Under the pieces are notes generated by a model, which saw only the letters and a program-made list of their open reading frames with translations, searched no databases and had not been told where the DNA came from. This document shows, piece after piece, positions 24,730 to 64,000 of a stretch of 64,000 nt of DNA. Origin of the DNA: Lasiodiplodia sp. COLG20 (lineage: Eukaryota; Ascomycota; Dothideomycetes; Botryosphaeriales; Botryosphaeriaceae). Made by a program: the position numbers and the translations under genes. Every line of letters begins with the position of its first letter. Positions within the stretch are counted from its first letter, which is position 1. The stretch lies in NCBI GenBank assembly GCA_009801085.1, contig VNWV01000041.1:32123-96122 (forward strand), in the 5' to 3' direction.

Positions 24730-24935
24730 GGTTGAAGATGTTCGTTTGGAAAATAGAAAGTGCGAATGGTGATGTTTCCGGATTTGAAATGACTCCACCG
24801 GTGGGTTCGGAGCAATTTATTGAAGTTTACATGTTCTCAGCTTTACTGCAATTATCCAAAGTACCGATACCCATTCGCTCTACTACTGATCATCTGGCGG
24901 AAGAACACTACTGGCTCTTCCGATCCGGGAAGACT

Positions 24936-40420: not shown

Positions 40421-42228
40421 TCAAAGCAGGACATCTTGCCAAGTCTTGTTTGAAAACAGAGGGACATCCGCCTCACAAACGGTTCCCGGATCGGGTAGCG
40501 TGCCATTCAGCAAGTACGCCTGAACAGCCTTGGTAGTGCATAGAGAAACCTGCGCCGGAGAGGTATGCTGTGAAGAGAGAACCTGAAGTTAGCATTGAAC
40601 GACTAAACATCAGGGAATGTAGCACTTACCCCGAACCCGTTATGCTGCAACGCCACACTCCCTTCGAATCCCTCACTGACATTCTTTGCCGAAGCCAACG
40701 GTGTGACGGGATCATACACACTCCCAATAAGCAGGATAGGATGCTTCGTTTTTACGTTGAAATCACCCGTGTATCGCTCCTTCGCCTGCGTCCGCCATCG
40801 GCCGCAAGTGGCAGAGAGGCCCGCCGAAGTATCACCTGCCAACCGACTTCTCTCGTTGAGCGCTTCCATTGCCGGCAGGATCGTCTTGTCGAACCCGTTC
40901 CTTGCCGGGTCTGCCCACGCAGACACGTCACCACCTTTGTCGCCACACTGGATGCCTTTCTGCGCGTCTGTGCCCGCGGATGCTGTGACTGATTCTGAAC
41001 CTGCCATCGCTTCTGTGATCACGGTATGGTTTTTGCTCAAAAGACCATCTAGTAGAGCCATGATTGATGGGTAGTTGATCGGGTTGTACAGGCCGAGGAG
41101 AATGTAGCCGCGGACCAGGTGGTAGTCGATGAGGATGCCACTCAAGGAGATGGGGCGTTGTTTGAGTTCCTCCATAAGCGAGTAGACGTCCTTTTCCAGG
41201 GATTCAGCGGTTTTGTTCGAGCCGGCGAGAGCGCAGCGCTCGGGGCCTGCCTCCACGCAGGCGGACAGGACGCCGGCGAAGGTTTTGTCAGTGTCGGTGA
41301 ACATCTCGATATCACTTGAGAGAGTGGTATTAGTATGGGCTTGGAATAGTTTGTAAAGACGGAGAACCTACTGGCCGTGGTAGTATTCGTGCGGATTTTG
41401 GACGCCATCCAGAATGACCCGGTCCATCCTGTCTGGGAACATCGCGGCAACCGTTGCGCCGAGCGTGGTACCATACGAGAGCCCTGAAGCTCGTAATTAG
41501 TATCACTATCTGCTGTAGTGACCAGTTTGTCCTCACCAATATATCTGAGCAACCCGTCCTCTCCAAGTGCGTCGACGATGCGCATCATGTCTCTTGCCAC
41601 GAATGCTGTTCCGATAAGGCTCCCCGTATCCTTGTTATTGGCCTCGCAGCTCTCCACCAGGAGGTCCGCAAGGCCCCAGAGCCGTCCAGGCATGACATCG
41701 GAGGCATTTCCAGAAAGCATCTGGATTGTCACTCCGGCTGCCAGCCTCTCAGCGTCGTTCTTGTAGCACGAATACGGCAACGCATTCCCGGTCCCTCTGC
41801 ATTGACATCTCGTGTCAGTACATCCGTCAATGTTCAACGGAAAGGACATCTCGTTACCTTGGATCGAACGTAATGAGGTCATGGTATCCTCCAGTAATAG
41901 CTTGGAGCTTCTGTGCACCGCTTGCCAGAGTATCACGTCCAGTGAATCCGGGACCGCCAAAGTTCAGCAGCACGCTACCCTTTGATGGCGTCTTTGCGGC
42001 CGGCACTTTCAGGAGCTCGAGGGTGAGCGTTTCGGTTGAGTTTGGAGATGAATAATCCAGCGGCACAGTGAAATTCGCACACTCAATTGGTAGGGTACCG
42101 TTCAAAGTGCAAGAACCCCATTGGATCCCCTGGTCCCGGGCCTGGGTAGGGTGGCTTGGTTGAATAATAGCACAAACAGCGCTGGCTTGAAGCAAGAATG
42201 TATAAAGCAAATGAGGTTTGGACAACAT
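40421..42228 (-). CDS. Secreted S33-family (TAP-like) peptidase/hydrolase
   Basis: Alpha/beta-hydrolase of the tripeptidyl-aminopeptidase type. Start at 42228 (MLSKPHLLYTFLLQASAVCA), giving a clear signal peptide, so it is secreted. The first block is IQWGSCTLNGTLPIECANFTVPLDY, with LLNFGGPGFTG as the oxyanion region. The nucleophile elbow GLSYGTTLGA is near 41480, the acid in IGSVYDPVTPLASA near 40720, and the catalytic His in QHNGFGH is split by the last intron. The C-terminal TAP-like part (AVQAYLLNGTLPDPGT) ends at 40421. A TATATAA box lies about 70 bases upstream (42296-42305). It probably releases short peptides or small acyl groups outside the cell. Confidence 0.9.
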
Positions 42229-42295
42229 GTTGGAAGTGGAGGAGTATGTCGGGCTGAGGATGAAAGTGAGAGGCTCTTTGTTGCGCTTACAGTCC

Positions 42296-42305
42296 GTTAT
42301 ATACC
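42296..42305 (-). promoter_or_regulatory. TATA box of the S33 peptidase gene
   Basis: The minus strand reads GGTATATAAC, 68-77 bases upstream of the ATG at 42228. Spacing and sequence suit a fungal TATA element. Confidence 0.45.
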
Positions 42306-43532
42306 TTGCTGTTATTTCTTTCGATGCGCGACAGAGACTGCCAGCCGTTATTCTTAGCAGTGTCAAAGGAGGCTTAGAGGATCATCAAGCAAGGCGATTT
42401 ACACGCGTGTACAAAAAAGGAAATGCCAAGCAGAAAGAAAAAAATAAAATGAGCGGACTCCGATGGGTTAGGCTCGAAGATGACGTCACAATACCTATCG
42501 ACGGCGAAACGATTGCGAAGGAGGCTTCAGCTGTCGCGTTTCCCGTGGGGAAACACCGCCACCGCAAGACTCACGGGCCACGGCACAGCCTTGTGTAAAA
42601 TACGCGTGTTGGCATTTGTCAGCGCTAAGGAACATATTCGGCTCGGCGCGCTGTCGCCAAGCCTTCTAGTTCTTACGTGCAGATACGCGTATACGGAGGA
42701 TTCATACTAAAAATCCCGTTCGCCGATCGCTGCCAAATTCCACGCCGGGGCGGAAGAGACTTTCAGAAAAACGATCAGCATTAAAGACAAAAGAAAAAGC
42801 ATTTCCTCTGACACACGTGTTAATTTTCCCTTGGACAAATACTTTCAGATAAATATATCGGTTCCCTACTAGAAATTCTTTCTGGCTCGGAACATGACAC
42901 CAGTTTCTGCATGGCAATCATTAAAATTAAAAGGAGGAATGTCGCACCGTTCTTTATGGAACAGGGCACGGGTGGCAGGCGGATTACTCACACACAGAAA
43001 TACAAGAAGGAAGAAATAGCGCCTAGAGAATTTGCGGATTCGTCTCATGGACCAGAACTAGAATCGATCACGGCGGGGTTTGAAATTGTAGGTGAAGAGG
43101 GTGTACTTGACTAGGAGTTTAGTGGTGCAGGAGATAGCGCAATAAATTACGATTGTTTGCGGTCGAAATCTTGGGAACATTCAACAATAATTATCGGAGA
43201 TTTCTTCAAGAATGCTATAAATATGACATTTGACCATCTGTTCAATGAGGCTTCGGGCTGCGTATGCGAGTGGTTGCACTAGCATCATCTGGGCACATTG
43301 CCGCGGGCCTTGCTACTGCCGCGGGCCTTGCTACTGCAGCGGGTTGAGCGGGGCAGCCCAACCGAGTTTGTTTACACTCAAGTGCAACATGTAATTGAGG
43401 CAAGCAGTGAAGGGAGTGGGAGGTCGGAGCAGGCGCAGACCACTGTGATTTGAAACGTGCTACCCGTTCATTGATTTCCCTTCCTTTACGGCGACGTACA
43501 TGCGAAGCGGTCTGTTAAAGACCCCAGGCTGC
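42306..43532. other. Intergenic region with a short tandem repeat
   Basis: Upstream flank of the peptidase and 3' flank of the arrestin-like gene. A 67-codon frame at 42911-43114 has no recognisable domain. The 18-bp tandem repeat is listed separately. Confidence 0.4.
43300..43343. repeat. 18-bp tandem repeat, about 2.4 copies
   Basis: Two perfect copies of GCCGCGGGCCTTGCTACT (43300-43317 and 43318-43335), then a partial, one-base-changed copy. It is GC-rich inside an AT-rich spacer. Confidence 0.75.
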
Positions 43533-45246: not shown

Positions 45247-47176
45247 TTAAATGATCAGTTCGAAGTCTCTATCAAAATGCGCAAAGATATCGAGGTCCGG
45301 CATGGTCTCAAAGATCATTTGGTCAAAGTTGTCAGCAACGCCAATCGCTCGTGGATTTCCCAGGTTCCCCTGTCCATAAATCAATCCAGACTCGTTCCCT
45401 GCATCTCCTACAACGTCCGTAGAGCTTTGACTCTGTAGTGCTGAGTTGATGCTGTTGGAAGTAGAGGCGGCCTCTACAGTATGCTGGTCTGGCCAAAGAG
45501 GCTCTATAGCTGGCATTTTATCGACCTCCCGCACGGTCTCCTCCGCCAAATTTGCCATGTTCACTGCTGAAGCAAACGTTGTCCCCAGTCTCCGGAGGAC
45601 GCTGCAGCTGAAAAGAATCTCTCTTCTAGCTCTCGTCCGAAAGATAGTGGCCTTGCTGGATCGGAAGTCCCGGTAAAATACTCTTAACGACAGTGACACG
45701 GCATATGGAATCGTCGGAAGCAGCGCTATATCCTCGCTTAATTCTTCGCGCACAATGGCAGAAATGCGACCGGCGGAAAGGCTTTGTCGGACATGTGATG
45801 CCGGCGATCTTGTTCTACATGCCAGAATGCCCACGGCGTGATACAAGATTTCGATTGTTGCTGAGAAAGTTAGCATTTGATGTATTAAAATATCAGCAGA
45901 GCGGAGATACCCATTAAACGAGAGCTGACAGAACTCGCATTGGACAAGTACACAATCTCCTCGAAGTCTGGAAACTCCGCATTTATGAAATCATCAGAGC
46001 TCCTCTCAACCATCCCTGGGCGATAGAGATTGATGGTTTGGTCCAGGAGCTTCACGGTCCTTAAGAAGACCCTAAAGCACGGATCCTGCTGACTGATGTA
46101 CAGATCCAGCTCCTGGCGGAGATCTCTTTCATGGATGAGCGTGGGTCGCCCACGAATTGCAGAGTTGAGCCGGTCTAATGCCCAGACGCAACAAAATAGT
46201 CTAGTCGCATTGGCAGTACACTTTCTGCCTGATCCTTGGTAAAGGTGCAGGCCCAGTGTCTGAGCGTAACTGACAACTCTTGCTGTAAGTTCGGCAGAGA
46301 AGTGGCGGTCGTAGGAGAGCTGGTTGAAAAGAGAGAGTAAGGTCAAGACTTGAATAATTACCGACTTGTCATTGACAGCTCCGAGGTTGATTGTGGTCAA
46401 TATGGCCAGCGACAACTGCTGAGCAAATTGATTGGGCTGCAACGGTGAGGAAGGATCGGACGAGAGTCGAAGGGAATTGTTCTGTTGTAAAGTGGCACTG
46501 GCGGCAAGGCAAATGGCCTGGGCCATGATCAATCTGATCGGAGAGTCTTCGGGAAGCTTATTAAATACATCCAAATCCAGTACGGGAAAGACAGGATGGA
46601 TGTCTCTTAAATAGATTGCCCGCAAAACATTAAAGTCGACGGGACTCGGGAGCAGAGAGAGGCATTGCTGCTCGAGATACGGAAGAAACAACTTTGATAT
46701 CAATGTGTCCGGGCTGTAGATGTAGTTAGACCGTGATTGTTGTGTCGGACAGGAGCTGGGCCTGTGAGATAGCCAGATGCCGAATTTATCTGGGTCGATG
46801 ACGCCATCGTTTCTTGATGGGGCTGCACCGGCCAGAAAGGTCGACTCGGGATTCATCTCACCCACATGGTATTGGTCCATGCGAGCTTCAGTCCCTTCGG
46901 CAGACCTGGGCGTTTCTGTCATAGTTGGTGGCGAACTACTTTGTTGACTGACAGAATTGACGGTCGACGCATTGGGCTCCTCCGCAGCTGGGCGTGGCGC
47001 TGGGGACAAAGCCGTAGGCGATGACACTGTGTCTTTGCCAGGTGTCTGATGGTCACATCGCTTCTAAGATTCAATCAGCGATGGATGCCGGCGCCAAGCA
47101 GGGAGCGACTAGCCTTGCGTTTGCGACATGCGTCACAGGCACGCGCACTGTTTGCGCTTTTGAGGCAATCCGCCAG
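45247..47176 (-). CDS. Fungal transcription factor with an incomplete Zn2Cys6 cluster (possibly decayed)
   Basis: The TF middle-homology region is well preserved: AIYLRDIHPVFPVLDLDVFNKLP, then SYAQTLGLHLYQGSG, LFCCVWALDRLNSAIRGRP and LYRPGM. One intron near 45880 leads to a C-terminal exon ending at 45247. The DNA-binding part is odd. The half motif CDACRKRK is readable at about 47114-47140 with a KRC continuation after a possible GC-donor intron. The next residues (DHQTPGK) lack the fourth, fifth and sixth cysteines, and no ATG precedes the half motif before an in-frame stop. The first in-frame ATG downstream is at 46922 (MTETPRSAEG), which would give a regulator with no zinc cluster. Either the gene is decaying or splicing is unusual. 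Confidence 0.65.
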
Positions 47177-47466: not shown

Positions 47467-49004
47467 TCAAGCTCCGATCCGCTTCTTGCACCTCATCACA
47501 AGTTCGTCGGGATTTGAGTTGAAGCGCTCCAGCGTCCGCAGCTCAAAGTCTGGGGAAAGAAACTCAAAATCAAAACGCCGAACCAAGGTTGAAATGACCA
47601 ATGTCTGCTCAAAGTAGGCAATGTTTCGCCCAATGCAAGCTCGTGGGCCGGTGCTGAAAGGAAAGTGCCCCTTGCTCATTCGTTCCTTATCTCCATCAAT
47701 CCACCGCTGCGGCCAGAACTTGTATGGTTGTTCGAAAATGTCTTCATTGTGCAGCAGCGTGTACGTTGGAACAGAAACAGTGACTCCTTCGGCGATGAAG
47801 CGTCCTACAATTTCACGCCCACCGCTTGGCACCAGACGAGGCAGACCAAAGGTACTTGCGGGTCGGAGGCGCAGTGATTCCTCAATGCATGCCCGCAGAA
47901 ATGGAAGCCGCGACACTACTTCGTAGCGAGGAAGCTCCTCAGGGCCAAACGCCGGGTCAAGCTCTTCGCGCAGCTTGGCCAGCACCTCAGGGTGCTTGTA
48001 GAGTAGGTAAATGGTGTTGGTCATTGCTGCCGTTGTCGTATCAGTGCCACCGTTCATCATGACGGCGCACTCGGACAGGATGGCTCCCAGCGGAAGGTTG
48101 TTCAATTCGCCTTTGCTGTTCGTAAGGAGCTTCGAGAAAATATCGTCACCTGCGTCGCCTTCTTGCAGTCGCTTCTTCGTGTTGTGGTAAATCATGTTGC
48201 CCCAGTCGTCGCCCGATCTCGTGTACGGGTGATAGGCGGCCAACTTCTTCGTAATCTTGAGCAGCGGCGCCTCGAAGCTCAGAAGGGTGTTGATGATGGT
48301 TGCATCATGCAGCGCCTTGATGAAATCGACCGTGTACAGTTTGCCCTCTGTCGTCTCTGCACACACGACATCATTGCCGCGCTCAAGGCAGCCCTGGGTC
48401 CATCCCCACACGAGCCTGGAGAAGAAGTCGATGGTGAAGTAGTTGAGATAGCGCCGGATGTTGATGTCCCGCCCTTCTACGGCGTGCATGTCGACCTGCT
48501 TCGCGAGCGTTGCTACTGTCTCAGCAACAATGGGCTCCAGCTGCACAATTGTCTTCTGCGCAAAGACATGGGCAAGCATCTTGCGCCTCTCTTGGTGCTG
48601 GGCCTTGTCCCTGGCGTCAGAGATGTTCCTGAATTCGCCAGCACCTCCATCGTACCAGCCATCCTTGAGAAAATTCGCGCCATGGCCGTAGATTTGCTGC
48701 ATAGCAGCAGGATCTGAGATTGAGATATGATTTGGTGCGATGCGTACATGCGTTCCCAGGTCTTGGTGCGCTTTGTCAATGGCCCGGTAGTGGTTGAGAC
48801 GCAGGTTGTGTGAGATGCGCCAAAGTGAAGAAACCCCTGCAAATGATGGCGAGGGGAATTGCCGGAGGTTCTTCCTGTCAATAAAGTAGCTGAAAAATGG
48901 GTGGATGAATATGAGGTATGCGCCGAAGGCCGCAACAACTGGTGCCGTGTCAGATTACCTGCCTACTCTGGGAATCAAATAAATCACTTACGTTGCAGAA
49001 TCAT
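47467..49004 (-). CDS. Cytochrome P450, benzoate-4-hydroxylase (CYP53)-like
   Basis: Start at 49004 (MILQ, then intron, then LVAAFGAYLIFIHPFFSYF as membrane anchor). It continues with LRQFPSPSFAGVSSLWRISHN and DLGTHVRIAPNHISISDPAAM. The rest is one long exon: I-helix MNGGTDTTTAAMT, EESLRLRPAS, FGLPRLVPSGG, FWPQRWIDG and haem loop FSTGPRACIGRN. The RLVPSGG and GTDTT features fit the CYP53/benzoate para-hydroxylase-like group. It lies between the damaged regulator and the first UstYa-like gene. It may therefore belong to the peptide cluster, to aromatic metabolism, or to neither. An inverted repeat lies 140-175 bases upstream. Confidence 0.9.
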
Positions 49005-49361: not shown

Positions 49362-50144
49362 TCAATCCAGCGTAACGCATCGAGCGAACAGCATGTCTAC
49401 CCTGGTATTGATGTGCTTGAAATCTGAGTACTTGGGGGCTGAGATCATGTCGACACAGTGCTGGGTGTGTGCGAGCGGGATGGCCTCGTCGGTGACAAGG
49501 TGGCGGGACATGCCGGCGAGGTGGAGCAGCTTGAAAATGTACAGGCAGTGCACGACGTGGTAGCCCTGCTCCGTGTAGACGCGGGGGGTGCTGGTGAGGG
49601 CGTCATCGGGAATCTCTTGGGTGGCGTTGAGGTCGTAGTACCACTTCCAGGGCCCATGCTTCTCCATCCACTGCCGCGATTCATCTGGGTTGTAGCACCG
49701 CGGGTGGATCCACCCAAAGCTCATTAAGTCCCACACGCAGCCCAGCGCCTGTGCCTCCTCGGGAGAGTTTCCGCAGTGCTCGACCACGTGCGACCCGCCC
49801 TGGTATGTGGGCCAGATGGGCACAAGCGAGCCTGCCTGCCGCCGCTGCGCGATAATGAGTACCAACGAGAGCACCCCGAGCGTCACGATGACGGATAGTA
49901 GGATGAGCGCCGAACAAAGCTTTGAGCGTGTCGAGTTGCGGTTGCGGTTCCAGTCGAGCTTCTCGCCTGCGATGAATGGCTGGTGCTCTTCTCCTTCGCC
50001 GGGACTAACAGGTAGGTCTTGGTAGGCCGCGTCGGTCGATGAACTAGCCCCTGAGGAACAGAACATCAGTCAGCGCAACCGCAGAAATGCTCACAGATGG
50101 TGGAACTCACACGTCGCCATGTTCTTTGCCAGTTTGGAAAACAT
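49362..50144 (-). CDS. Divergent UstYa-like (DUF3328-related) membrane protein A
   Basis: The start is taken at 50144 (MFSKLAKNMATW) with an intron after ATW. An in-frame ATG at 50120 is also possible. It has one membrane segment (LCSALILLSVIVTLGVLSLVLII, near residue 60) typical of type II proteins. The lumenal domain has CGNSPEEAQALGCVWDLM and WIHPRCYN. Two HxxHC motifs (YHVVHCLYIF and AHTQHCVDMI) match the paired motif thought to be catalytic in UstYa proteins. UstYa-family oxidases modify RiPP cores in the secretory pathway. It is paired divergently with the GNAT gene at 50410, with about 265 bases between them. Confidence 0.78.
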
Positions 50145-50409: not shown

Positions 50410-51211
50410 ATGATCAGTCCGTCAGCTCATCAGCAAAGTACTCAGAAGTACGTCATACAGCCAGTTTCGCCTGCCCAAGATGCGGAGGACCTTGCCGAGA
50501 CCATGGTGCGCGCCTTCTACCAGGATCTGCATTGGGCTTCGCTCTGGAAAAACACGACCCTGGATGAAATCATCGAAGACTGCAAACGACGGCTTCCGCG
50601 GAACCTGATCGGCGACCTCTGCATCAAGCGGCACCAGAAAGTAGTGGAACTTGCAACAGGCAAGGCGGTGGGATATGCTCGCTGGCTACTGCCGGGAGAA
50701 GCAGCCGAAGAGGAGCGCTGGGCCGATGCTGCGGTGCCGACAGTCGACGACTCGACGCGACGACACTTTGAACAGTTGTTTGAGAGCGTCACCCACGACG
50801 GCGGCAAGATCCGCCATCTCGACGATGCCATGGTAAGCGAGCTGAGCCTCGCCATCGAAGTGGCTGAAGACCATGTGCGGCGCGGGGATGCCGACTTTCT
50901 CAGTAAGCTGCCACCCCCTTACCTATGCGGCAGATTGCTGATCATCCTTGCAACAAGCACTCGATTATTTGGCCACACATCCTGACCACCAGCGGCGTGG
51001 TGTAGGAAGCATGCTTCTGCGGAGCGGCCTTGCTTACGCGGACGAGAAGCGTCTGAAGGTGTTGGTTGTTGCCAAAACGCCGGGGGTAAAGCTGTACGAA
51101 CATCACGGGTTCTGCATTGTAGAGGTGGTAGAACAGGAGCGTCCGCAATATGGCTGGTCCACACCGTATAGGACAACTATTCTCGTACGACATCCCAGGC
51201 CAACGATGTGA
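50410..51211 (+). CDS. GNAT-family N-acetyltransferase
   Basis: Start at 50410 (MISPSAHQQSTQKYVIQP). The N-terminal part has AEDLAETMVRAFYQD. An intron (about 50902-50963) joins ADFLS to LDYLATHPDHQRRGVGSML, which is the acetyl-CoA-binding motif A (Q/RxxGxG/A). KLYEHHGFCIVE follows as motif B. There is no signal peptide. In fungal clusters such proteins acetylate amines or give self-protection. Here the predicted peptide has two lysines and an N-terminal amine per unit, so N-acetylation is possible but unproven. A detoxification role is equally possible. Confidence 0.85.
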
Positions 51212-51425: not shown

Positions 51426-52847
51426 TTACAAACCAAGCGTGCTCCAGGACTTTGCCAGTGCTGTCAGGAATTCCGCTTGCACGGCTACAAAAAGAGGTCC
51501 AGGGGTGGAATCAAGATCCTGCAGAGTCCCCAATCCCGCAAGAAGCATGGCGGCGCGCCGTTTCACCCTCGACAGCCCCTCCTGCACCTGGACTCTGGGG
51601 GATCCAGGGGGTTGACTTGATGGCGAAGTTATCTCGTTGAGGCTTACGGAGACGACTTTGTTTAGCAACTCGTATGCGCTGCTCAGAAGCAGGCAGCATT
51701 TTGTTACTACCAAAGCCGGCACGCAAATGGCGCACAAAGCCATCTCTTCGGCCGTTCCAAGAGCGTGTTGTACGGCTTCGAGAGACGAAATGTATTGCAT
51801 GTCCTCGCGTGCAGCGGAGAGCCGATCTAGAGAGCTCAATGCGGCCTGGGAGCAGCTGCATTGGAGCTTGTCCTGTCGCCCACAATGAACTGCTCGGGCT
51901 CCACATTTCAACCTGCGGTAGATTTCAACTTGTAAGCTACTATTGCAAATTAAATAGTAGCTGATGGTCTACTTACGAGTCATTTCTGGGCTCAGCCGGC
52001 GTCGACTGAAACGCCCGACTACATTGACACATTTGAGGCGCCGAAACCGCTCTTGCATCAGGGTCGTCCGTATTGTCTTGGCACCTTGACTTTTCCCGGT
52101 CAGCGTCTGCTTCTCAGCTCAATGGCATCCAAATCCTGCTTCAACTTACGAGTAGCTGGCTAAAACCTATGAGGTCCTCCGCTTGATCCGGCCTGATTGA
52201 TGAAAAATTTGCAGTCGAACCTCCGTCTTTGACACCTGTTGCCCCAGTAACAATTCCCCCTCCATCTGGTACCAGGATATTGTTCAGCAAGAGGATCTCA
52301 TGTGCGGAAGAGGAAAATCCACCATTTACAGCGGGCCAGTCTGCCAAGTCATCCATCTGCAGCGGTACGAGGCAATGTGCGGAATTGATTCCCATCGTTG
52401 ATGGCGAAAACATGTCCCAAAGGTCGGGCGAATTGTTAGGGGTTGGAGGGCCTTGGTACTGCTTTTCTGCAGATGTCGAGTCAGTGGGTGAGCAGTCTGA
52501 CAAGGCGAGCCATGCATACCAGAACCACAACGTCCTTCGTTGCCTTCATCATCGTCGCCGTCGTCGTTGTCAGCATTCTCCACAGATGAGATGCTTCTGG
52601 CTCGCTGGTGCAACTTCCTACCCTCCATAACGTCCGACACTTCTCTCCGCATCCAGGCTGATGATGGTCGGCGGGTCCTCGATTTCTTCGGCCGGCCCAT
52701 CCACTTGCCAAGGCTGTAGGTGCATACGCTCTTGGTCATCCGACAGCGGGCGCAACCCGACTGCTCCATTGTGCACTTGACCTTGCACCGATAGCATTGG
52801 TCGCATGCTTTTGAGTTGCCCTTCCCCGAATCCATGGACGACTGCAT
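51426..52847 (-). CDS. AflR-like Zn(II)2Cys6 cluster regulator
   Basis: Start at 52847 (MQSSMDSGKGNSKACDQC). The zinc cluster is complete: CDQCYRCKVKC-x6-CARCRMTKSVC, followed by a basic RPKKSRTRRPSS stretch. An intron near 52472-52522 leads to EKQYQGPPTPNNSPDLWDMFSPS. The C-terminal exon (51426-51911) has the helix-rich AflR-type tail (SSLEAVQHALGTAEEMALCA-x-VVTKCCLLLSSAYELL). This architecture is typical of pathway-specific regulators. It sits between the GNAT/UstYa-like pair and the UstYa gene and is the obvious candidate to control the peptide cluster. Confidence 0.88.
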
Positions 52848-54035
52848 TGGACGTGGTGGTGCATACGACAGGGAGTTGGAAGGGATTCCCTCTTACGTTT
52901 TCCTCACTCACTCTCGTTGCTTTTGCAGACCTCGTCCGTTCTGCAGGGCGGTAAGCCAGAGGCTTATAAGGTTTACGCCTACTATTTTCAGTCCAACAAG
53001 TACTTCTATCTACCACCTTGTACGAGGCGTACCGACTCGCCGCACAGCTGCGTACTATGCTAAGCATGACGATCGTGGCCGCAATAGCCATACGGTGAGC
53101 AACGTGAGGTGTCGCAATCGCGCTACCACGTGTACTGTAGCCCGAGGGTAGCTCTTGCTAGCGTGCTTCACTGCAACAAGGGCTAAAAACAGGTTTTGTG
53201 AAGCGGTTCAGCCAGTAGGACATCACTGAAAAACACCTTAAATTCAAAGATCTACATCAGGTCCGCGCTAGAGATAATATGTCCTCCTCTTATTACAGTA
53301 TCTCATGGATGATACGGTGTCTGGCTTACGAGTCAGCAAGTCGTATTGGTCCGCAAGTCATGAATTTCCGATGCTTTTCTGAGTGGCAACAAATCTCTAA
53401 GCAACTCCCGCCAGGAAGAGTTGTCCCTTCAGCCGTTGGGTTGCAGCCATACTATACACACCGGGTTAGCGTTTGCACCAAATACGAGATTCGACACAAC
53501 CTCGTATTTGATGCGAAGATGATAGGGCGGCGATGCGCCCGGTTACAAAGTTAAATATTCTCAGAAACAGCCGCAGGGCTACGAATGCTTACTTTAACCA
53601 AGGCTTATCTCAGCGCCCTATTCTATACTAGAGCGCCGCTCTAGAAATAGCTTAACAGACCGCCTTTTCTAATGTCCGTTGGGCTACGACGCTATAACTC
53701 TATCTATGAAAAAGGACTAACACGTCGATTACGAAAATCGCATCCGAGCAGTGCCGTAGTCTTTTGACATCATCATACATGTAAATTTACATCAACTCTC
53801 TCCTGCATATAACAGATGCCAAGTGTCCCAGTTCCGGGAAATGCGTTGAGTTCGGAGTTACAGGCTCAACTTTCCGGCGGCTCCGCAAGCCGGCCACTTC
53901 GACCATTGTGTAAAAAAGAATACGAGATACGAAAATGGAAGGAATAGCTACTCAGTACATTTCTATTAAAATGCTACGATCTGCTTTTTCCATTATCTTT
54001 ATTATTATTTTAAAACAAATATTTGATTGTTACAA
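52848..54035. other. Intergenic region, partly AT-rich; promoter of the UstYa gene
   Basis: No gene recognised. A 91-codon frame at 53279-53554 has no domain and no exon partners. About 53560-53800 looks weakly RIP-like. Near 53874-53893 a CCGGC...GCCGG inverted repeat spans GGCTCCG, about 150 bases before the UstYa start. Confidence 0.4.
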
Positions 54036-55010
54036 ATGTCTTATCCGATTCAAGTAGAGCCACAAGAAGAAGTGCCCTTTTTGTACAATGAAATCCATAC
54101 ATCAATGCAACTTCCAGGATCGAGAGGATTGCCCAGAAGCTCAATTTCGACTGGGAGAGCACAGCGACGGAAGGAGGCAAGACAGAAAGTCAACGACCGA
54201 ATCTGGCCACTGCACCTGCTACACACTGTCGTCTGGCTGGCAACTCTGTTTGCTGTCTTCATTGCAGGCTGGAAGACGTCATCCCAAATGGCATTGGCGA
54301 GAAATTGGAAAGATAAGGCTGCAGTGTCCCGACGATGGATGCCAAATCGAGACTTCGATCCAGTCATGGGACAACGCACAGACGTGAGCGACGCGGCGTG
54401 GGACACGATGCATTCACGTGAGTTGGGTCCCCAGCAGAAAGCAGCAAAGCGAAGCGGAAATGGAAGTGCTCCTTTGCTTTGCCCAATTCCCCGCATTACT
54501 GTCACTGCTGACTTAGGAAGGCTATGTCGGCATCGAAGACCCAGCCAACGAGGGCTATCCTCCGTCATCCTTCGCGCCAGAATACGGGAACGTTAGCGCC
54601 TATGCAGTCTCGGCTTTCCACCAGCTGCACTGTCTGTGAGTCTTGCTACCGAATGGAGAGGCGCACCTCGATGTCACCATGTTGCTGACAGGAATAATAC
54701 CAGACGGACAATCCGCAGCGCCTGGTTTGCAGTTCTCGAGCGAGGTCCATCTGTACTCGACAATCCGTCCGGCGTACCGGGCCACCCATCAACAAAAAAG
54801 GCACTCGGTCCGCACATCACCCACTGCTTCGATTTCATTCGCCAGGCGCTCATGTGTTTTGCTGACTCCACACTTGAGCCGTTTCTTGAAGAGGATGGCG
54901 TCACATTGCAACCCCGCGGATCCAGTGGATGGGGCGTGACACATCAATGCCGGGACTTCAACGCACTCGTCGACTGGGCGGAACAAAGGGCAATTTTCCA
55001 AGGGCTGTGA
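54036..55010 (+). CDS. UstYa-family oxidase (DUF3328), canonical
   Basis: Start at 54036 (MSYPIQVEPQEEVPF). One membrane segment lies near residues 60-82 (LHLLHTVVWLATLFAVFIAGW), making a type II protein. Two introns are needed: one near 54418-54520, using an AAG acceptor to give YVGIEDPANEGYPPSSFAPEY, and one near 54634-54691. Both catalytic-type motifs are present: FHQLHCL and HITHCFDFIRQALMCFADSTLEP, followed by the conserved GWGVTHQCRDF and W near the end. This family performs oxidative cyclisation or other oxidation of RiPP cores (ustiloxin, phomopsin, asperipin-type pathways). It lies about 2 kb from the repeat precursor gene and is intact. Confidence 0.9.
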
Positions 55011-55857: not shown

Positions 55858-56586
55858 ATGTATCGGTTTCCATCTCTGCCCAAATATTCTCTTCTTTCCT
55901 CGCCTGACGAGGGAATGGTGGGCGACCAGCGGCCTGTAGCTCACCCTTTATACATACGTAAAATCGTCACGGTCATTGCATTGAGTTTGCTTTCGCTTGC
56001 AGCCACATTTCTTCTCCTTCTCGCTCTTTGCATCACCTTCATCTCTCTCCTCCCACGGCTTCTTGCCAGGTCATCATTGGAAGCCTTGTGCCCTGTCGGG
56101 TCAGGGAGCTCCAAGTTGGTGCAAACTTCCGCCAGCTACAAGGCCGGCACGGCCCAACCGTGCGGCAGCTCGCCCGTCGAAGCGAAAGCGGCCGGGTGTG
56201 TTTTCGACCTGATGACCGTATCATGGCTGCCGCTGGAGTGCTACGACAGTGAGCTGACGGCGCAGTTTATGGAGGAATGGCCGTGGAAATTCTATCTGTC
56301 CAACTCGACATTGCCCGAGGCGCCACCAGAATCACGCGAGGAAATTCCATCGCTGGAAGCCATCAGCAGCACCACTGAGCTCATGTGGACGGACCGCCGC
56401 TTTCACATCTATCACTGTATCTACGGCTGGAAGATGATGCATCGCGCCGTTGAACGCGGCTGGAAGATGGAAAGCTCCTTGACTTCGTACCACCACACCG
56501 AGCATTGCTCCGACACTCTTGCCAACACGACGGTACCCATGGATGCTGTAGTCACCAGGGTCGAGCTTTCATACCCCGCCCGTTGA
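55858..56586 (+). CDS. Divergent UstYa-like (DUF3328-related) membrane protein B
   Basis: Single exon of 242 residues from the ATG at 55858 (MYRFPSLPKYS). One strong membrane segment lies near residues 40-65 (VIALSLLSLAATFLLLLAL). Then come PCGSSPVEAKAAGCVFDLM, SWLPLECYDSEL and WPWKFYL, and the paired motifs FHIYHCIYGWKMMHRA and YHHTEHCSDTL. It is the same type as the protein at 49362-50144, with which it shares the CG-S/N-SP-EA-GC block. It is clearly different from the canonical UstYa at 54036. It is probably lumenal and acts on the same secreted precursor. The gene ends about 450 bases from the convergent precursor gene. Confidence 0.8.
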   Translation: MYRFPSLPKYSLLSSPDEGMVGDQRPVAHPLYIRKIVTVIALSLLSLAATFLLLLALCITFISLLPRLLARSSLEALCPVGSGSSKLVQTSASYKAGTAQPCGSSPVEAKAAGCVFDLMTVSWLPLECYDSELTAQFMEEWPWKFYLSNSTLPEAPPESREEIPSLEAISSTTELMWTDRRFHIYHCIYGWKMMHRAVERGWKMESSLTSYHHTEHCSDTLANTTVPMDAVVTRVELSYPAR

Positions 56587-57036: not shown

Positions 57037-57497
57037 TCAGTCGACCTTGACTTTCTGGGGCTCCGGATCGCGCCTGTCAACCTTGACCTTCTGAGGTTCA
57101 GCTTCGCGCTTGTCGACCTTGACTTTCTGAGGCTCTGGCTCACGCCTGTCCACCTTCACCTTCTGGGGGTCCGGGCCACGCCTGTCCACCTTGACCTTCT
57201 GCGGTTCCGGGTCACGCTTGTCAACTTTGACTTTCTGAGGCTCTGCCTCACGCTTGTCGACCTTGACCTTGTGGGGATCAGCCTCGCGTTTCATGAGCCC
57301 CTCGAGGCCGTTGAAGTTGTTGATGTCATGCTGAGCTGCAATCCGAAGTCCTCTTGTTAGCCCATGCTTGTGCTTTCGAAACATAAATTTGATTGTAGAC
57401 AAATCAAGTAGGAGACTGAAAACCCACCTGGACTCAGCGGGAAGGCGGCAGCTGCAGTGGCCATAACGGCAATGGTGACGACGGAGGAGAACTTCAT
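57037..57497 (-). CDS. Secreted repeat peptide precursor (Kex2-processed, RiPP-like)
   Basis: Two exons (57428-57497 and 57037-57335) encode about 122 residues. Exon 1 starts at 57497 and is a signal peptide (MKFSSVVTIAVMATAAAAF). A short leader (HDINNFNGLEGLM) follows, then seven 12-residue repeats, each a KR or RR pair plus ten residues ending KVKVD; the last KVKVD is directly before the stop. The four residues after each dibasic pair are EADP, EAEP, DPEP, GPDP, EPEP, EAEP and DPEP, always two X-Ala/X-Pro dipeptides. Kex2 cleavage and Ste13-type trimming would leave QKVKVD six times and HKVKVD once. The layout matches dikaritin-type RiPP precursors, and UstYa-family genes lie alongside. There is no Tyr, Phe or Trp in the repeats. 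A pheromone-like secreted signal is the main alternative. Confidence 0.85.
57040..57291 (-). repeat. Seven tandem 36-bp coding repeats
   Basis: Exactly 7 x 36 bases inside exon 2 of the precursor gene. The KVKVD codons differ between units at third positions (for example AAG/AAA, GTC/GTG/GTT) while the five residues never change. The four residues after the dibasic site vary. This pattern suggests selection on the core peptide rather than very recent duplication. Confidence 0.9.
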
Positions 57498-57977: not shown

Positions 57978-60011
57978 ATGATGGGTAGTATGCCTTGCCA
58001 GTCAATGACAATGCCAGTGATACCGGGAAATGAGCAGCCTGGGGCATGCAATGGATCAGACGGCCCGCACATCGACAGTACCACTCCGTACACGTTTGTC
58101 CGTTGGTGGAAGTTATTGGTCATGGCGCTTCCAAATCTTGGGTGAGTTTTCCAAGCCGCATCTATACTGTAGCAAAGGATTGCTGACTCTGTCATAGTAT
58201 TCAGATGATTTGGCTAGTCGTCATGTCATATGGCACGGTAAGTAAAAGATGAAGATATTGAAGACCACGTCTCTGATCTGAAAACTGCTGTTCAGCCATA
58301 CATGGCGGGGCTCGGAATGCCAACATCTCTCACCGCTCTGATTTGGCTGTCAGGTCCTCTGAGCGGAGCCCTGGTGCAGCCAGTGTTCGCAACCATCTCA
58401 GACCGGACACAACACCCTTGGGGTCGCCGGAAGCCCTACATTGCTGGCGGCGCTAGTTTCGTCTGCCTGTCTCTGCTTGGGCTGGCCTGCGCTGAGGACG
58501 TGTCCAACTGGCTTTCCGGTCTCAAATCATTGAAACACCATGCTTACGCATCGGGTCCACCCCAATCCAGCATGCTGACAAAGCTTCTTGTAGCCTTCTG
58601 GGCGTGCATCCTCAACGTCGCGGTGCAGCCGCTGCAGAACGGGGTACGTTCGCTCACCGTCGATACTTTTCCGCCGCAGCAGCAGAGCCAGGCAGCGGCG
58701 TGGGCCGCGCGATTCAACAGCCTGGGTGCCGTACTCATAGCAAGCTCGGCCATTTCTGACATCTCGGCATGGGCACCACTTCTTGGGGATACCGACTTCA
58801 AGGCTTTGTGCGTGCTGGCCGTCCTCGCGCTGGCGACGACGGTCCTCCCAGCATGTCTCCTGATTGCTGACACTCCAGCCAACTGTCACGAACTCAGTGA
58901 GTCCACAGTCGAGAGACGGAAACGGGGGACGGTAGCAAGGCTCTTTGCTGGTGCGAAGACTCGTTTCTGTTGCTTGCCGCCTGTAACGCGCCAAGTGTGT
59001 AAGGTACAATTCTGTGCGTGGTTGGGCTGGTTTGCCGTGCTTTATTATTCGACCACATATGTCTACGAGATCTGTGAGTACTTCCACATCTACCATTTCT
59101 CATTTCATCTACCATGCACTGAATTACCGCCCTTTTCCTTCCTGTGATCCCGGGCTGCTTCTACACTCTGTCAACCTTCACACTGCACTTTAATAATGAA
59201 GTCCTTAAATAAGCGCTGACAAACACCACACCCAGTCGTTCTCGACCAGCACATCCACCTCGACCCAGAAATCTTTGGCAGCGCAGATCCGCGCCTCATC
59301 GTTATGGGCAAAAAAGCGGGCACACACGCCTCCTTTTACTTCGCCTGCGTGACCCTGGTCTCGGCCATTACCATCCCATGGATTGCCTCTCAATCTTGCT
59401 CCTCCTTGCCGGTCAGCAGCAGCTTAAAAGATGTTAAGCCAAGCAAGCTTCAACGCTTATCCGTCGGACGGGCGTGGCTGCTTGCTCACTGCCTCTTTGC
59501 CACCCTCATGTTTCTCACCACCTTTGTACACACAACGCCTGCGGCCACTGTCATTGTCGCTGTGCTGGGCCTCAGCTGGGGCATCGCGTCGTGGGCGCCG
59601 TACACACTGATCGGTGCCGAGATCGTGGGGCTGCGGGCTGATGTCGCGGCAATTCAGGAACGGCAGCGGCAGCGGCAGCAACGGTATACGGTCTCTGACA
59701 GCCCTTCTGAAGGAGGAAAAGAGCTGTTGGGTGGCGTAAGTGGTGCTGATGGAGGAAGGCGGCGTTTCAGCGATGAGGAGGAAGGCGGCAGCGAGGAAGA
59801 TGGGGAGGAGTATGTGGACACGAACACGGCTAGCATCATGGCTGTGTATAACATGGCCATCTCCATTCCGCAAATCTGTGCGACATTAACGTGCAGTGCT
59901 CTCTATAAAGTTACAGAAGTAGCTAGAAGAGATGATCTAGCTGTATTAGCGTTTAAGCTTACGGGTATTGCTATAGTATTGGCGGCGTGGGTAGGAAGAA
60001 ATTTAAAATAG
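57978..60011 (+). CDS. SLC45/GPH-type sugar-cation symporter-like transporter
   Basis: Twelve-helix-type major facilitator resembling plant and fungal sucrose transporters. The start is taken at the ATG at 57978 (MMGSMPCQSM). Exons join as FVRWWKLLVMALPNLG, IQMIWLVVMSYGT and PYMAGLGMPTSLTALIWLSGPLSGA. The signature loop between helices 2 and 3 is SDRTQHPWGRRKPYI. An intron at about 59074-59236 leads to VLDQHIHLDPEIFG. The C-terminal part holds an acidic and Arg-Gln-rich cytoplasmic loop (RQRQRQQR, EEEGGSEEDGEEY) and then the last helices. It is divergent from the precursor gene, so it may export the peptide, import a nutrient or load the secretory route. The family's usual substrate is a disaccharide. 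Confidence 0.87.
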
Positions 60012-60420
60012 AAATAGTAGTAATTTAAGTAAGCACTCTACGCGATTCGTAATTACTACTAGCTTAGTATAGTAGCGCTCTGGCTTTAAGTAGTACTTTC
60101 GCTTTAAGTAGTACTCCGGCGTCTAGTAGCGCTTCGGTTTCTAGTAGCGTTTCGGTTTTTAGTAACGTTTTAGCGTTAAGTAGTACTTTTACTTTTAGTA
60201 GTATTTTCGTAGCCGTTAGTAGTAGCGCTTCGACGTATAGTAGTAATACCGCTAGTAGTAGTACTTTTACTTCTAGTTAGACCGCCGCGTTTACTAGTAG
60301 TAATATAGCTATATTAGCTAGTAGTAGTACGTCTATATCTAGTAGTAGTCTTATATTTAATAGTAATATCGCCGCCGCCGTTGCTACTAATAGTAATAGA
60401 TAAAGTTCGTAAATAGTAAG
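60012..60420. repeat. Low-complexity TAGTAG-rich degenerate repeat
   Basis: Many imperfect units of about 18-20 bases of the form TAGTAGCG(C/T)TTCGG(T/C)TT(C/T), decaying into TAGTAGTA runs. It begins directly after the transporter stop. It may be a RIP-altered remnant of a serine-rich coding repeat. No intact frame. Confidence 0.55.
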
Positions 60421-63400
60421 ACTAATAACCTACTATAATAGTAAAAGACGTATAGATAGATAACTCTTTCTTTTATTATTTATAAAGATAGACCGGCTAG
60501 CTAAAACTTTAATCTTTTAGATTAAATTTATATACGTATAAAACGTAGATATAAAAGTAATTTTTCTTAAATAGCTTATAATAATAATAATTTACTCTCT
60601 TTTACTTTTATTTATTTAGATCTTATTAGTACTATTTTTTATCTTTAGTCTTTTTATTTTAACGTATTTACTACTACGATTAATTATTTTAGATTTTATT
60701 TAAACGTTTTATTTCTCGTTATATAATATAGCTTTTATAAACGCTTTTTTAAATATTAAAAATAGCTATTATATCGTTTTAAAAGAGCTTAAAAGTAAAA
60801 AAACTACTATTAATAAATATATTAATAGCGAACTATTACGAACTTTAAGAAATATAGACTTTATAACTTTAAAAGTAGAAAGTCTATATAAAAAAGTTCG
60901 TCGTAAGAAATAATAAGTTTCGAGAATAAAAGAGTCGTATAATTTTAGATTTTATACGAAAATTTAAAAAATACGAAATAATAACGCGTACGAAAATACT
61001 AGTAGATAGTAGTTAAAGCCCGTATAAAAGAAACGTTTATAAAAATATAATAACTCTAGAAGTATTACGCTAGAACTAGAATAAAAATAAAATAAAGAGT
61101 ATAAATAGTTATATAGCGTTATATTACGACACGCTTAATAGTAGTAAAAAAGTTAGAATCTTATACGACTTACCATCTACGTAACTAATCTCTTAAATTT
61201 AGTACGATCTATCTAGCTAATTTAGTCGTATTTAAATCTACTAACTTAAGCTACTAAACTCTTTTTATTATTCTAATTACTCTAGTTATCTTAATTACTA
61301 TAAGTAACTAATACTAATTATATTAATTACTCTATATATATAGACTATACTCGTTATAGTAGATAGAATCTTCGTAGTTAATTCTAATTATTATCTTATA
61401 TCTCTCTTATTATCTTCTCTATCTAACTACGATTACTATTCTCTAAGTATAATACTTAGTAATATTTTAGATAGCGGTAGTAAACCTCTTAGCGCTATAT
61501 AACTATTTATATTTTTTATCTTATCTCTATTTTAGTTCTAGCGTAATACTTTAACTACTTTTTTTATAGATATCGAAGATAAGATCTTCGAAAAAAAAAG
61601 TAATTATAATAATTTAGACTACGATTCGCATCTTTCTCTTTAATATAAAGAAGTAGCTCTAAAATATCTATCTAATAATTTCTAAGAAATCTAATATAAA
61701 AATCTATATAACTATATTAAAGATCTATACCGCTAAAATTATCTCTCTAATCCGCGACGTTAGTTAATTTTAAATTTTTTCTAACGCCTCTAAGAACTAT
61801 ACTATAATTTTACTAAAATACTTTATTAGAGAATAGATCTTTTTAGTTAACTATACTACTAGATTTCGAGAGTAATCTTTCGTTATAAAAGTTACTTTCG
61901 CTCTATCTATCTCTATATAAGTATAAAACTCGAAGTTTAAAGTTAAGAAATTTAATATTTTCGACGATATTCGAGAAAAACTAGACGAATTTCTATAATA
62001 ACTATATATCTACTTTTATTTATTTAGTACGGCTTTCTAAAACGATATCTAAAAAATCTTCTTTACTAGATCGTTATTACGAAATTAGAATACGGGTTAA
62101 ACGGCGTAGTAGAACTTATAGACGGACTAAATTATCTTATACTAAAATCTCGGACGTATCTAACTTATTTAGATAGCTAATAGTTTAACTTTACGAAGTA
62201 GATCTTTTTTAGCTACTAGTTATTCTACTATCTATACTAATACTATAGTCTAGTTAACTAGCGGCTAATTATAGTATATAGAATATACTTACTTATAATA
62301 GATAGAACTTTCGTAGTTAATTCTAATTATTATCTTATATTTCTCTTATTATCTTTTCTATCTAACTATAGCTACTATTCTTTAAGTATAGTATCTAGTA
62401 ATATTTTAGATAGCGGTAATAAATCTATTAACGCTATACGACCGTCTATACTTCTTATCTTACTTTCTTTTTAGTTCTAGCGTAATACTTTAACTATCTT
62501 TTATAAGTATCGAAGATAAGATCTCCGAAGAAAAGTAACTATAATAACTTAGATTATAATCCACGTCTCTCTCTCTAACGTGGAGAAGTAGCTCTAAAAT
62601 ATCTATCTAATAATTTTTAGAAAATCTAATATAGAAACTTATATAACTATATCGAAGATCTACGCTACTAAGATTATCTTTCTAATCCGCGACGTTAGCT
62701 AATCTTAAATTTCTTTCGACGTCTTCGAGAACTATATTCTAGTTCTACTAAAATACTTTATTAGAGAATAGATCTTCTTAGTTAACCGTACTATAAGACT
62801 CTAAGAGTAATCTTTCGCTACGAAAACTACTTTCGTCCTATCTACTTTCGTATAGATATAAAATCTAAAGTTTAAAGTTAAAAAGTCTAACGTCTTCGAC
62901 GATATCTAAGAAAAACTAGACGAATTTCTACGATAACTATATATCTACTTCTACTTATTCGGCTCGACTTTCTAAAACGATATCTAAAAAATCTTTTTTA
63001 CTAGGTTATATCTCCGCGAAAGTACCGCTCGATAGTTTAAACCATATTAGAACGACTTCGAAAAAATAGACTAGTATAAGAAAACTATATAACTTTTCTA
63101 TAGCTATAATAACTTTACTAAAACTCTTTAAAAAACGTTTAAGAATAAGAACTAATACTAAAATATAGTATACTAAATCTAAACGCTTAAATAAACTAGC
63201 TTTATCGTAATTTATACTATTTAGTTTCGACTCTATATCTTCTAACTCTAATAGCCCGATAACGTTCTTAAAATATTATATTACGAGAGACTAAAGAACT
63301 ATATTAAAAACGAGTTCGCTAGAATTAAGCTATTTAATTTATACTAGAAGATAGTTCGTATCGCTATCTAACTCGATACTCGGCTATACGACCGTCGTAG

Positions 63401-63850
63401 AAAAGCGATTCGATTAAATCGCTCTATAGTTAACTCTAGCTAAATCTAAAATATAACGAGCTTTAGCGAATTTATAAACCTTAATAGCGTTAGACGTAAC
63501 GGGTCTCTATCTTAAAAAAAAAAAGACCGACGTTGTAAGAAAGATCTATATCTACGCTATAATAAGAAGAAATACTACGTTCGCTAATATAAGAGCGATA
63601 ATAAGATAATACGTTAAATCTTAATTATATAAGTAACGAAAGTAGAGAAATTCTATAATAAGTAGTATTAGATCGATTATACTAACGATAAATACAAAAG
63701 CTATTACGAGCTAAAAGAAATCTATAGATACTAGCCGAAGGTAAAAAACTAAAAAAGTCTCTAATCTAAAGGCGGGTAGAGGCGTAGTCTCTAACGTCTC
63801 TTTAAATAATTATAATAACGACCGGTAATACTAAAGAAAAACTCTCTTAT
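60421..63850. mobile_element. RIP-like, duplicated retroelement (gag-type) relic
   Basis: Extremely AT- and TA-rich DNA without any long open frame. The plus-strand frames around 62890-63060 and the matching part of the upstream copy still show the residue pattern of a retrotransposon gag domain (LDEF, LYIYFYLF, FKPY). Stops fall where C-to-T or G-to-A changes would convert Gln or Trp codons. A possible CCHC zinc-knuckle remnant lies near 63525-63590. TA enrichment and transition-type damage are the marks of repeat-induced point mutation. The element is dead. It cannot be assigned to a named family by eye. Confidence 0.6.
61350..63010. repeat. Two direct copies of about 700 bases, offset about 940
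   Basis: 61350-62070 and 62290-63010 align throughout, for example GATATCTAAAAAATCTT near 62045 and 62985, and TAATCCGCGACGTTAG in both. The copies differ mostly by C/T and A/G changes, as expected if a duplication was followed by RIP. Confidence 0.75.
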
Positions 63851-63855
63851 ACGAG

Positions 63856-64000
63856 TTAGGGTTATTTAGGGTTATTTAGGGTTAGGGTTAGGGTTAGGGT
63901 TAGGGTTAGGGTTAGGGTTAGGGTTAGGGTTAGGGTTAGGGTTAGGGTTAGGGTTAGGGTTAGGGTTAGGGTTAGGGTTAGGGTTAGGGTTAGGGTTAGG
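63856..64000 (+). repeat. Telomeric (TTAGGG)n array, right chromosome end
   Basis: Continuous TTAGGG repeats to the last base, running 5' to 3' toward the end, as expected for a right telomere. The first units at the inner edge are interrupted by TTAT spacers (63856-63880); after that the array is regular. It shows that the whole window is subtelomeric. Confidence 0.97.

What the first reader, a model, noticed from the sequence alone, without database searches (positions are those of the whole stretch)
57037..57497. Repeat precursor whose variable residues obey a double X-Ala/X-Pro rule, predicting one hexapeptide
Seen: seven repeats, each KR/RR plus four variable residues (EADP, EAEP, DPEP, GPDP, EPEP, EAEP, DPEP) plus Q/H-KVKVD. 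Established: Kex2 cuts after KR/RR, and Ste13-type dipeptidyl aminopeptidases remove X-Ala and X-Pro dipeptides, as in alpha-factor maturation. Inference: the two dipeptides are spacers, and the product is QKVKVD (six copies) plus HKVKVD (one). Third-base changes with an invariant core argue for selection. I know of no described fungal RiPP or pheromone with this core.
Basis: partly seen in the sequence, partly recalled or inferred. Interest (0 to 1): 0.93.

Follow-up and report, generated by a model that had tools for sequence, protein, structure and literature searches.

The report
Fungal multi-copy hexapeptide precursor in UstYa cluster
Near a chromosome end, this fungus carries a gene for a secreted-type protein built of seven copies of a six-residue peptide that seems to be cut out like a yeast mating factor, but it sits among genes for peptide-modifying enzymes, so the product may be chemically altered; a close variant of the peptide was listed in 2019 without a function.

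Summary
The double-dipeptide reading is strengthened by relatives: in Stemphylium lycopersici, Colletotrichum shisoi and Clarireedia jacksonii the hexamer stays x-K-[VL]-K-V-D (one of 33 copies ends in Ala), while the spacer is zero, one or two X-P/X-A dipeptides. The claim that the core is undescribed fails: Le Marquer et al. 2019 list QKLKVD as conserved KEP motif 6. The gene lies about 6.4 kb from telomeric repeats. Most likely, Kex2/Kex1/Ste13-type trimming releases QKVKVD and UstYa-type oxidases modify it. Trimming is well supported by sequence; modification rests on one genome's neighbourhood, because the relatives' neighbourhoods could not be read. A core without aromatic residues would be an unusual substrate for these enzymes. 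Real; new variant of a known kind; product and role untested.

The parts
57037..57497 (-). precursor gene: exon 1 57497-57428, intron 57427-57336, exon 2 57335-57037; 122 aa with hydrophobic N-terminus
57040..57291 (-). seven tandem units [KR]R-x[AP]-xP-[QH]KVKVD; last copy ends at D before the stop codon, which marks the C-terminal boundary of the core
55858..56586 (+). UstYa-like membrane protein (242 aa), tail-to-tail with the precursor, two HxxHC motifs; below the Pfam UstYa cut-off (E 1.3); one relative (P0020, 60% identical in the alignment) scores exactly the cut-off
54036..55010 (+). canonical UstYa gene, exons 54036-54417, 54521-54635, 54704-55010 (modelled by hand), 267 aa, HQLHC and HITHC
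   Evidence: PF11807 E 1.7e-30
49362..50069 (-). second UstYa-like protein, 30% identical to 55858-56586, two HxxHC motifs (PF11807 E 0.095, below cut-off)
57978..60011 (+). MFS transporter, divergent from the precursor across about 480 bp; four-exon model by hand, last acceptor uncertain
47467..48954 (-). cytochrome P450, possible cluster member
   Evidence: PF00067 E 1.6e-64
50410..51211 (+). GNAT acetyltransferase, 248 aa (two exons by hand), membership in the cluster uncertain
   Evidence: PF13508 E 9.2e-10
51429..52892 (-). Zn2Cys6-type regulator, exons not fully modelled; Zn_clus just under its cut-off
   Evidence: E 0.0013
45885..47063 (-). fungal transcription factor domain protein, possible cluster edge
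   Evidence: PF04082 E 4e-12
40603..42381 (-). TAP-like alpha/beta hydrolase (peptidase type, by its C-terminal part), membership unknown
   Evidence: PF08386 E 6.8e-9
63876..64000 (+). telomeric TTAGGG array at the end of contig C36

Best explanation
The gene encodes a Kex2-processed repeat precursor. After entry into the secretory path, Kex2 cuts behind KR/RR, a Kex1-type carboxypeptidase removes the basic pair, and a Ste13-type dipeptidyl aminopeptidase peels off two X-Ala/X-Pro dipeptides, giving six QKVKVD and one HKVKVD. The UstYa and the two UstYa-like membrane proteins encoded beside it then most likely oxidise this Lys/Val/Asp peptide (hydroxylation or a side-chain link), and the product is secreted. 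Shown: the sequence pattern, its conservation, genes of the Kex2 and DPPIV families in the genome, and the UstYa neighbours. Inferred: each cut, any modification, and the role. Separate estimates: hexapeptide by dipeptide trimming 0.8; modification by the neighbouring UstYa set 0.5.
For: Relatives with constant hexamer and 0, 1 or 2 dipeptides: of 33 cores in five proteins, 30 follow a KR/RR; 15 of these have two dipeptides, 11 one, 4 none, and no spacer is odd or breaks the X-Ala/X-Pro rule. C. shisoi EP-EKLKVD and bare EKLKVD give the same hexapeptide only if EP is removed. The last copy ends at D before the stop. The genome holds 2 DPPIV_N and 2 P_proprotein matches. UstYa E 1.7e-30 and two UstYa-like genes. 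Only about 0.3% of the genome lies within 5 kb of the 11 other UstYa/UstYa-like loci. C1:4.098-4.105 Mb and C21:27.9-31.4 kb also combine a repeat precursor, a UstYa and UstYa-like genes (the one on C21 recognised by eye only).
Against: The gene neighbourhoods of the three named relatives could not be read, so linkage rests on one genome. In Ascomycota 30.1% of KEP genes have a DUF3328 gene among the 15 nearest (PMC7329392, section 7), so proximity is not rare. Of 22 relatives of 55858-56586, 10 carry an organism name (Botryosphaeriaceae, Pleosporales, Bisporella) and none is S. lycopersici, C. shisoi or C. jacksonii, so this enzyme may not travel with the peptide. The core has no Tyr, Trp, Phe or HH; 65.6% of the repeats of DUF3328-linked KEPs hold Tyr. 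Among the 30 entries given to Pfam (some twice) there was no tyrosinase and no S41 protease; the whole window was not scanned. hhalign links the UstYa-like family to UstYa only weakly (E 0.003, probability 10%). No expression or mass data.
Confidence: 0.55

Rival explanations
1. A linear, unmodified signalling peptide: the hexapeptide is a hormone-like secreted KEP product, and the UstYa genes nearby serve another, unidentified peptide or nothing.
For: Strict alpha-factor-like spacers; Le Marquer et al. propose STE13-signature KEPs as peptidic hormones; Umemura finds almost all pheromone-annotated KEPs without DUF3328 neighbours (abstract); no UstYa-like hit named from the three relatives' species; no aromatic residue in the core.
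Against: UstYa and UstYa-like genes lie beside the precursor, and the repeat filters found no second repeat precursor in the window. The precursor at C34:9.6-10.3 kb also has X-Ala (DA) after KR and canonical UstYa genes 3-8 kb away, so X-Ala after KR does not exclude a UstYa cluster.
Confidence: 0.3
2. A mating pheromone precursor (alpha-type) of this fungus.
For: Same architecture: signal-like N-terminus, KR plus XA/XP, repeated core. No other alpha-pheromone gene was found here by pattern.
Against: The core has neither the two cysteines nor PYGxPxG that Le Marquer et al. give for Dothideomycete pheromones, and the paper lists QKLKVD apart from pheromones. The pattern search was narrow: C-x2-PGQ-x-C gave 21 hits, and in the 16 loci read the matching frame never held more than one copy.
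Confidence: 0.06
3. A structural or surface peptide: alternating Lys/Val hexapeptides assemble into beta-rich coats, in the manner of Rep1-type repellents.
For: Alternating K-V-K-V; seven copies. Resemblance to K/V beta-forming peptides is recalled, not tested.
Against: Six residues is short, and such small peptides are not known to me as hyphal coats (recalled); the UstYa neighbours are not explained.
Confidence: 0.04
4. A decaying or never-expressed array near a chromosome end.
For: Subtelomeric position; AT-rich last 4 kb with GC 0.274; no transcript data.
Against: Open frame across the splice, synonymous-only change in KVKVD, four relatives with the same layout.
Confidence: 0.05

Closest known systems
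KEP motif 6, QKLKVD (Le Marquer et al. 2019, PMC6339444; sections 8, 10, 11 and found passages read)
   Same: Kex2-cut repeat precursor with a hexamer differing by one Leu/Val exchange; S. lycopersici protein P0003 has exactly QKLKVD.
   Different: Here KVKVD, two dipeptides per unit, and UstYa-type genes adjacent. What I read says nothing of neighbours for motif 6; the species list is in a figure and supplement not readable here.
Dikaritins (ustiloxin, phomopsin, asperipin-2a, victorin) (PMC9233826 and PMC12048977: passages; PMC7329392: abstract, section 7, part of section 6, passages)
   Same: Secreted multi-copy precursor, Kex2 sites, UstYa genes with double HxxHC nearby.
   Different: Core without Tyr or Phe; explicit X-Ala/X-Pro spacers, said by Le Marquer et al. 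to be absent from precursors of toxic cyclic tetrapeptides and of epichloecyclins; no tyrosinase among the entries scanned.
Ascomycete alpha-type pheromone precursors
   Same: KR followed by XA/XP dipeptides and a repeated core.
   Different: Core unrelated; UstYa-type neighbours, which almost all pheromone-annotated KEPs lack (PMC7329392 abstract).
UstYa, PF11807
   Same: Membrane anchor and two HxxHC motifs in the two UstYa-like proteins; remote profile match.
   Different: In the 19-row alignment of relatives of 55858-56586 an own conserved block C-G-x-[ST]-x2-EA-x3-[GD]C-x-[FW]-D precedes the HxxHC motifs (read); below the Pfam cut-off.

Membership tests
KEP (Kex2-processed repeat protein) | repeated motifs separated by KR/RR/KK | tested here: met
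KEP (Kex2-processed repeat protein) | N-terminal signal peptide | tested here: inconclusive
   hydrophobic residues 4-19, mean Kyte-Doolittle 1.85, and 1.54-1.96 in three relatives; no signal-peptide predictor at hand
KEP with STE13 signature | XA or XP dipeptides directly after the Kex2 site | tested here: met
   14 of 14 dipeptides in the window
QKLKVD group (motif 6, Le Marquer et al.) | repeat similar to QKLKVD (their groups are by similarity, curated by hand) | tested here: met
   QKVKVD, one Val/Leu exchange; profile search joins the window precursor with P0003, which has QKLKVD exactly
Dikaritin RiPP | UstYa (DUF3328) gene close to the precursor | tested here: met
   54036-55010, PF11807 E 1.7e-30
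Dikaritin RiPP | two HxxHC motifs in the oxidase | tested here: met
   HQLHC and HITHC in the translated model
Dikaritin RiPP (ustiloxin/phomopsin type) | Tyr-containing core (EDYxI) | tested here: not met
   QKVKVD/HKVKVD; so not filed as an ustiloxin/phomopsin-type dikaritin
Dikaritin RiPP | side-chain cyclised product | not testable with these tools
   needs mass spectrometry
Alpha-type mating pheromone | Dothideomycete core with two Cys or PYGxPxG | tested here: not met
UstYa PF11807 (for 55858-56586 and 49362-50069) | score over the Pfam cut-off (25 bits) | tested here: not met
   9.3 and 13.0 bits; relative P0020 25.0 bits, P0014 18.3, P0016 14.4, P0022 13.1

The most novel reading that the evidence does not exclude
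An aromatic-free UstYa-type RiPP: an alpha-factor-style precursor, trimmed by dipeptides to QKVKVD, whose Lys, Val or Asp side chains are oxidised or joined by a UstYa together with two members of a second UstYa-like family that Pfam misses. This would merge the hormone-type (STE13) and toxin-type (UstYa) classes of fungal repeat precursors and make the UstYa-like family a finder for overlooked clusters.
Probability: 0.4. Interest if true: 0.75.

Novelty: new variant of a known kind. Interest (0 to 1): 0.52.

Why it matters
It predicts one short, exactly defined peptide (QKVKVD, [M+H]+ 716.4301; pyroglutamyl form 699.4035), so a motif listed in 2019 without a function becomes directly testable by mass. 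It also joins two features that the surveys read here largely keep apart, STE13-type spacers and UstYa enzymes. And it points to a UstYa-like family below Pfam's cut-off that lies beside a repeat precursor at 3 of the 5 loci where it was seen in this genome (C36, C1, C21; not found at the two C7 loci).

Tried and rejected
Pheromone search by C-x2-PGQ-x-C pattern: 21 hits, 16 loci read, the matching frame never with more than one copy; does not prove absence. Structure of the 55858-56586 protein: mean pLDDT 70.2, 12 PDB matches with E up to 10, none with E up to 0.001. PDB sequence searches: UstYa-like profile none up to E 1, UstYa profile three with lowest E 0.096, unrelated. Search of prokaryote and viral contigs for stray fungal DNA: A3 none in both, A1 none in viral, one in a Nostoc MAG (L046). 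That one is an open frame of 72 codons of heptamer units such as DPQKVKVDPQKLNVD without any dibasic site, on a contig whose other frames look cyanobacterial: dropped as unrelated. In some searches I had translated another frame, which holds stops. The name 'Major facilitator superfamily transporter' on some UstYa-like hits was first taken as a hint of fused neighbours; I recall it as a PANTHER subfamily label and drop it. A Pfam FAM47 hit on the precursor (below cut-off) is low-complexity similarity. P0005 (E 0.039) and P0006 (E 1.7) were left out of the core count: other cores. The UstYa-like alignment used 18 of the 22 hits (P0007, P0015, P0017, P0027 not included). Rows that passed the repeat filter but were Arg- or Lys-rich, antisense to a precursor or otherwise not Kex2-spaced were set aside by eye. 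In one search a 3-kb locus (L030) passed the filter on the antisense frame of another repeat protein; not counted as a precursor.

Not in print, as far as searched: QKVKVD, TKVKVD, QKLKVD, EKLKVD, KRGPEPQKVKVD (one paper, QKLKVD only); KLKVDKR, KVKVDKR, KLKVDAR, LKVDKR, KVKVDRR (none); PTHR35896, SPPHKT, LKVDKREP, KLKVDK (only SPPHKT, same paper). The library holds open-access papers only; supplements of PMC6339444 and PMC7329392 could not be read.

Full report
Observation. The gene is as described: on the minus strand an ATG at 57497, an intron 57427-57336 with GT-AG ends, and a stop ending at 57037 give 122 residues. The N-terminus is hydrophobic, MKFSSVVTIAVMATAAAAFP, and seven units [KR]R-xxxx-[QH]KVKVD follow, the last ending at Asp right before the stop. 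The stop marks the C-terminal boundary of the core without any need for a cut.

Selection. Inside KVKVD, 9 of 9 base deviations from the consensus are third-position synonymous changes; in the spacers 52 of 83 pairwise base differences lie in non-synonymous codon pairs. The naive probability of 5e-7 treats changes as independent, which repeat copies are not. Against P0001, a near relative of unnamed origin, 10 of 122 residues differ: 7 of 38 leader residues, 2 of 28 spacer residues, 0 of 35 KVKVD residues, and the His of copy 1, which is Gln in P0001.

Relatives. The single-sequence search gave 2 proteins at E <= 0.01, the profile search 6 at E <= 10, with only the 7991 candidates sharing most words scored. 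Four are relatives with this core: P0001; P0002 of Clarireedia jacksonii (TKVKVD, last copy TKVKVA, with extra stretches between some copies); P0003 of Stemphylium lycopersici (QKLKVD); P0004 of Colletotrichum shisoi (EKLKVD). P0005 and P0006 have other cores and were left out. With the window, five proteins hold 33 cores. Thirty follow KR or RR through a spacer of two dipeptides (15), one (11) or none (4), every dipeptide ending in Ala or Pro, with no odd spacer (recounted without assuming even length). The other three are first copies after a single Arg, with EP, EP and NA-EP-EP. C. shisoi is telling: EP-EKLKVD and bare EKLKVD stand in one precursor and give one product only if EP is taken off.

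Proteases. The genome has two DPPIV_N matches (open frames of 997 and 817 residues, the second with two stops inside the match, possibly an intron) and two P_proprotein matches. Kex1 was not searched. Calling these Ste13 and Kex2 is by family, not tested.

Setting. The window lies at the end of contig C36 and ends in a TTAGGG array from 63876, about 6.4 kb from the precursor. The genome has no name here; the nearest named relatives of its UstYa-like protein are Lasiodiplodia theobromae (85% identity), Diplodia (71 and 69%) and Neofusicoccum (69%), so it is probably a Lasiodiplodia-like member of the Botryosphaeriaceae (inference). Beside the precursor are a canonical UstYa and two UstYa-like proteins, 30% identical to each other, which Pfam does not accept. 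One relative of the first scores exactly the Pfam cut-off; three others scanned fall below it. In the 19-row alignment the second HxxHC is present in all rows and the first in 18, missing in P0021 through a gap. Profile comparison with eight UstYa segments aligns both motifs but with low probability (10%, E 0.003). So kinship to UstYa is likely, not proven.

Internal replicates. Searches for UstYa and the UstYa-like proteins in the own genome give 12 loci (grouping). Fifteen 10-kb stretches over the 11 other loci were scanned for repeat precursors: 3 of 11 loci hold one (C1:4.098-4.100 Mb with DDQKYAWYNFKR units, C34:9.6-10.3 kb with AYVWASSAKAKR units, C21:27.9-28.8 kb with KRQFMIDAYEELD units). 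The remaining 8 gave none by the two filters used. Five control stretches elsewhere gave none, too few for a test by themselves; Umemura reports 5.25 KEPs per Ascomycota strain (PMC7329392 abstract), so a random 10-kb stretch should rarely hold one. UstYa-like genes are found by search at C36, C1:4.10 Mb, C7:300 kb and C7:208 kb, and an open frame with two HxxHC motifs, seen by eye only, lies beside the C21 precursor. Thus C36, C1 and C21 combine precursor, UstYa and UstYa-like genes; the two C7 loci showed no precursor.

What it most likely does. Trimming to the hexapeptide is well founded. For the next step the neighbourhood suggests oxidation by the UstYa set. Le Marquer et al. state that the STE13 signature is absent from proteins releasing toxic cyclic tetrapeptides and from epichloecyclin precursors, and take it as a mark of candidate hormones; Umemura finds almost all pheromone-annotated KEPs without DUF3328 neighbours. 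The window joins both marks, and the C34 precursor (KRDA) does so too, so the division is not strict. Against modification: no aromatic residue; a base rate of 30.1% of Ascomycota KEPs with a DUF3328 gene among the 15 nearest; no sight of the relatives' neighbourhoods; and no UstYa-like hit named from their species among the 22, of which 10 are named.

Prior art. QKLKVD is motif 6 of Le Marquer et al. 2019 (section 10 read), seen in at least four species by their criterion. No other paper in the library holds the core strings searched. The sections I read give no function for it. In Venturia inaequalis, 10 effector candidates were putative repeat precursors of DUF3328 clusters and 4 of these peaked in mid-late infection (PMC9632046, passages read), a possible parallel.

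Verdict. A real gene-like unit, a known core family in a new variant, and a setting not tied to it in what I could read. The processing claim is strong, the modification claim is open, the role unknown.

Noticed in passing
window 60001-64000: The window ends in a telomeric TTAGGG array (63876 onward); the last 4 kb have GC 0.274 against 0.486-0.575 in the other 4-kb blocks.
   Followed up: partly
L012:5248-6684 (-), C1:4098248-4099684: Repeat precursor with 11 DDQKYAWYNFKR-type units beside three UstYa-like genes and a UstYa.
   Followed up: partly
L014:587-1333 (-), C34:9587-10333: Repeat precursor with AEEAPAYVWASSAKAKRDA units near UstYa genes; resembles the YVW[G/A][G/S] core of Le Marquer et al..
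   Followed up: no
L019:1883-2806 (-) and L019:3420-4640 (+), C21: Repeat precursor with KRQFMIDAYEELD units next to a UstYa and an open frame with two HxxHC motifs.
   Followed up: partly
L030:955-2784 (+), C7 about 215-217 kb: 610-residue frame made largely of APLSLRDA/REA units, about 6 kb from a UstYa-like gene (C7:208567); mostly single Arg, some RR.
   Followed up: no
window 1-30000: Several P450-like pieces, a terpene-synthase-like frame (4081-4722) and FAD monooxygenase-like frames, read by eye: perhaps a second metabolite cluster in the window.
   Followed up: no
window 23681-24816 (-): Two frames resembling an extradiol/glyoxalase-type dioxygenase, read by eye.
   Followed up: no
C34:13.5-17.7 kb and C57:26.7-30.6 kb: Two UstYa groups with the same strand order and closely similar segments (L014:8371-8679 and L017:2299-2607), a likely duplicated cluster.
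   Followed up: no
L046:9995-10210 (+): In a Nostoc MAG, an open 72-codon stretch of tandem heptamers (DPQKVKVD/TQKLNVD type) without dibasic sites; the likeness to the core is probably chance.
   Followed up: partly
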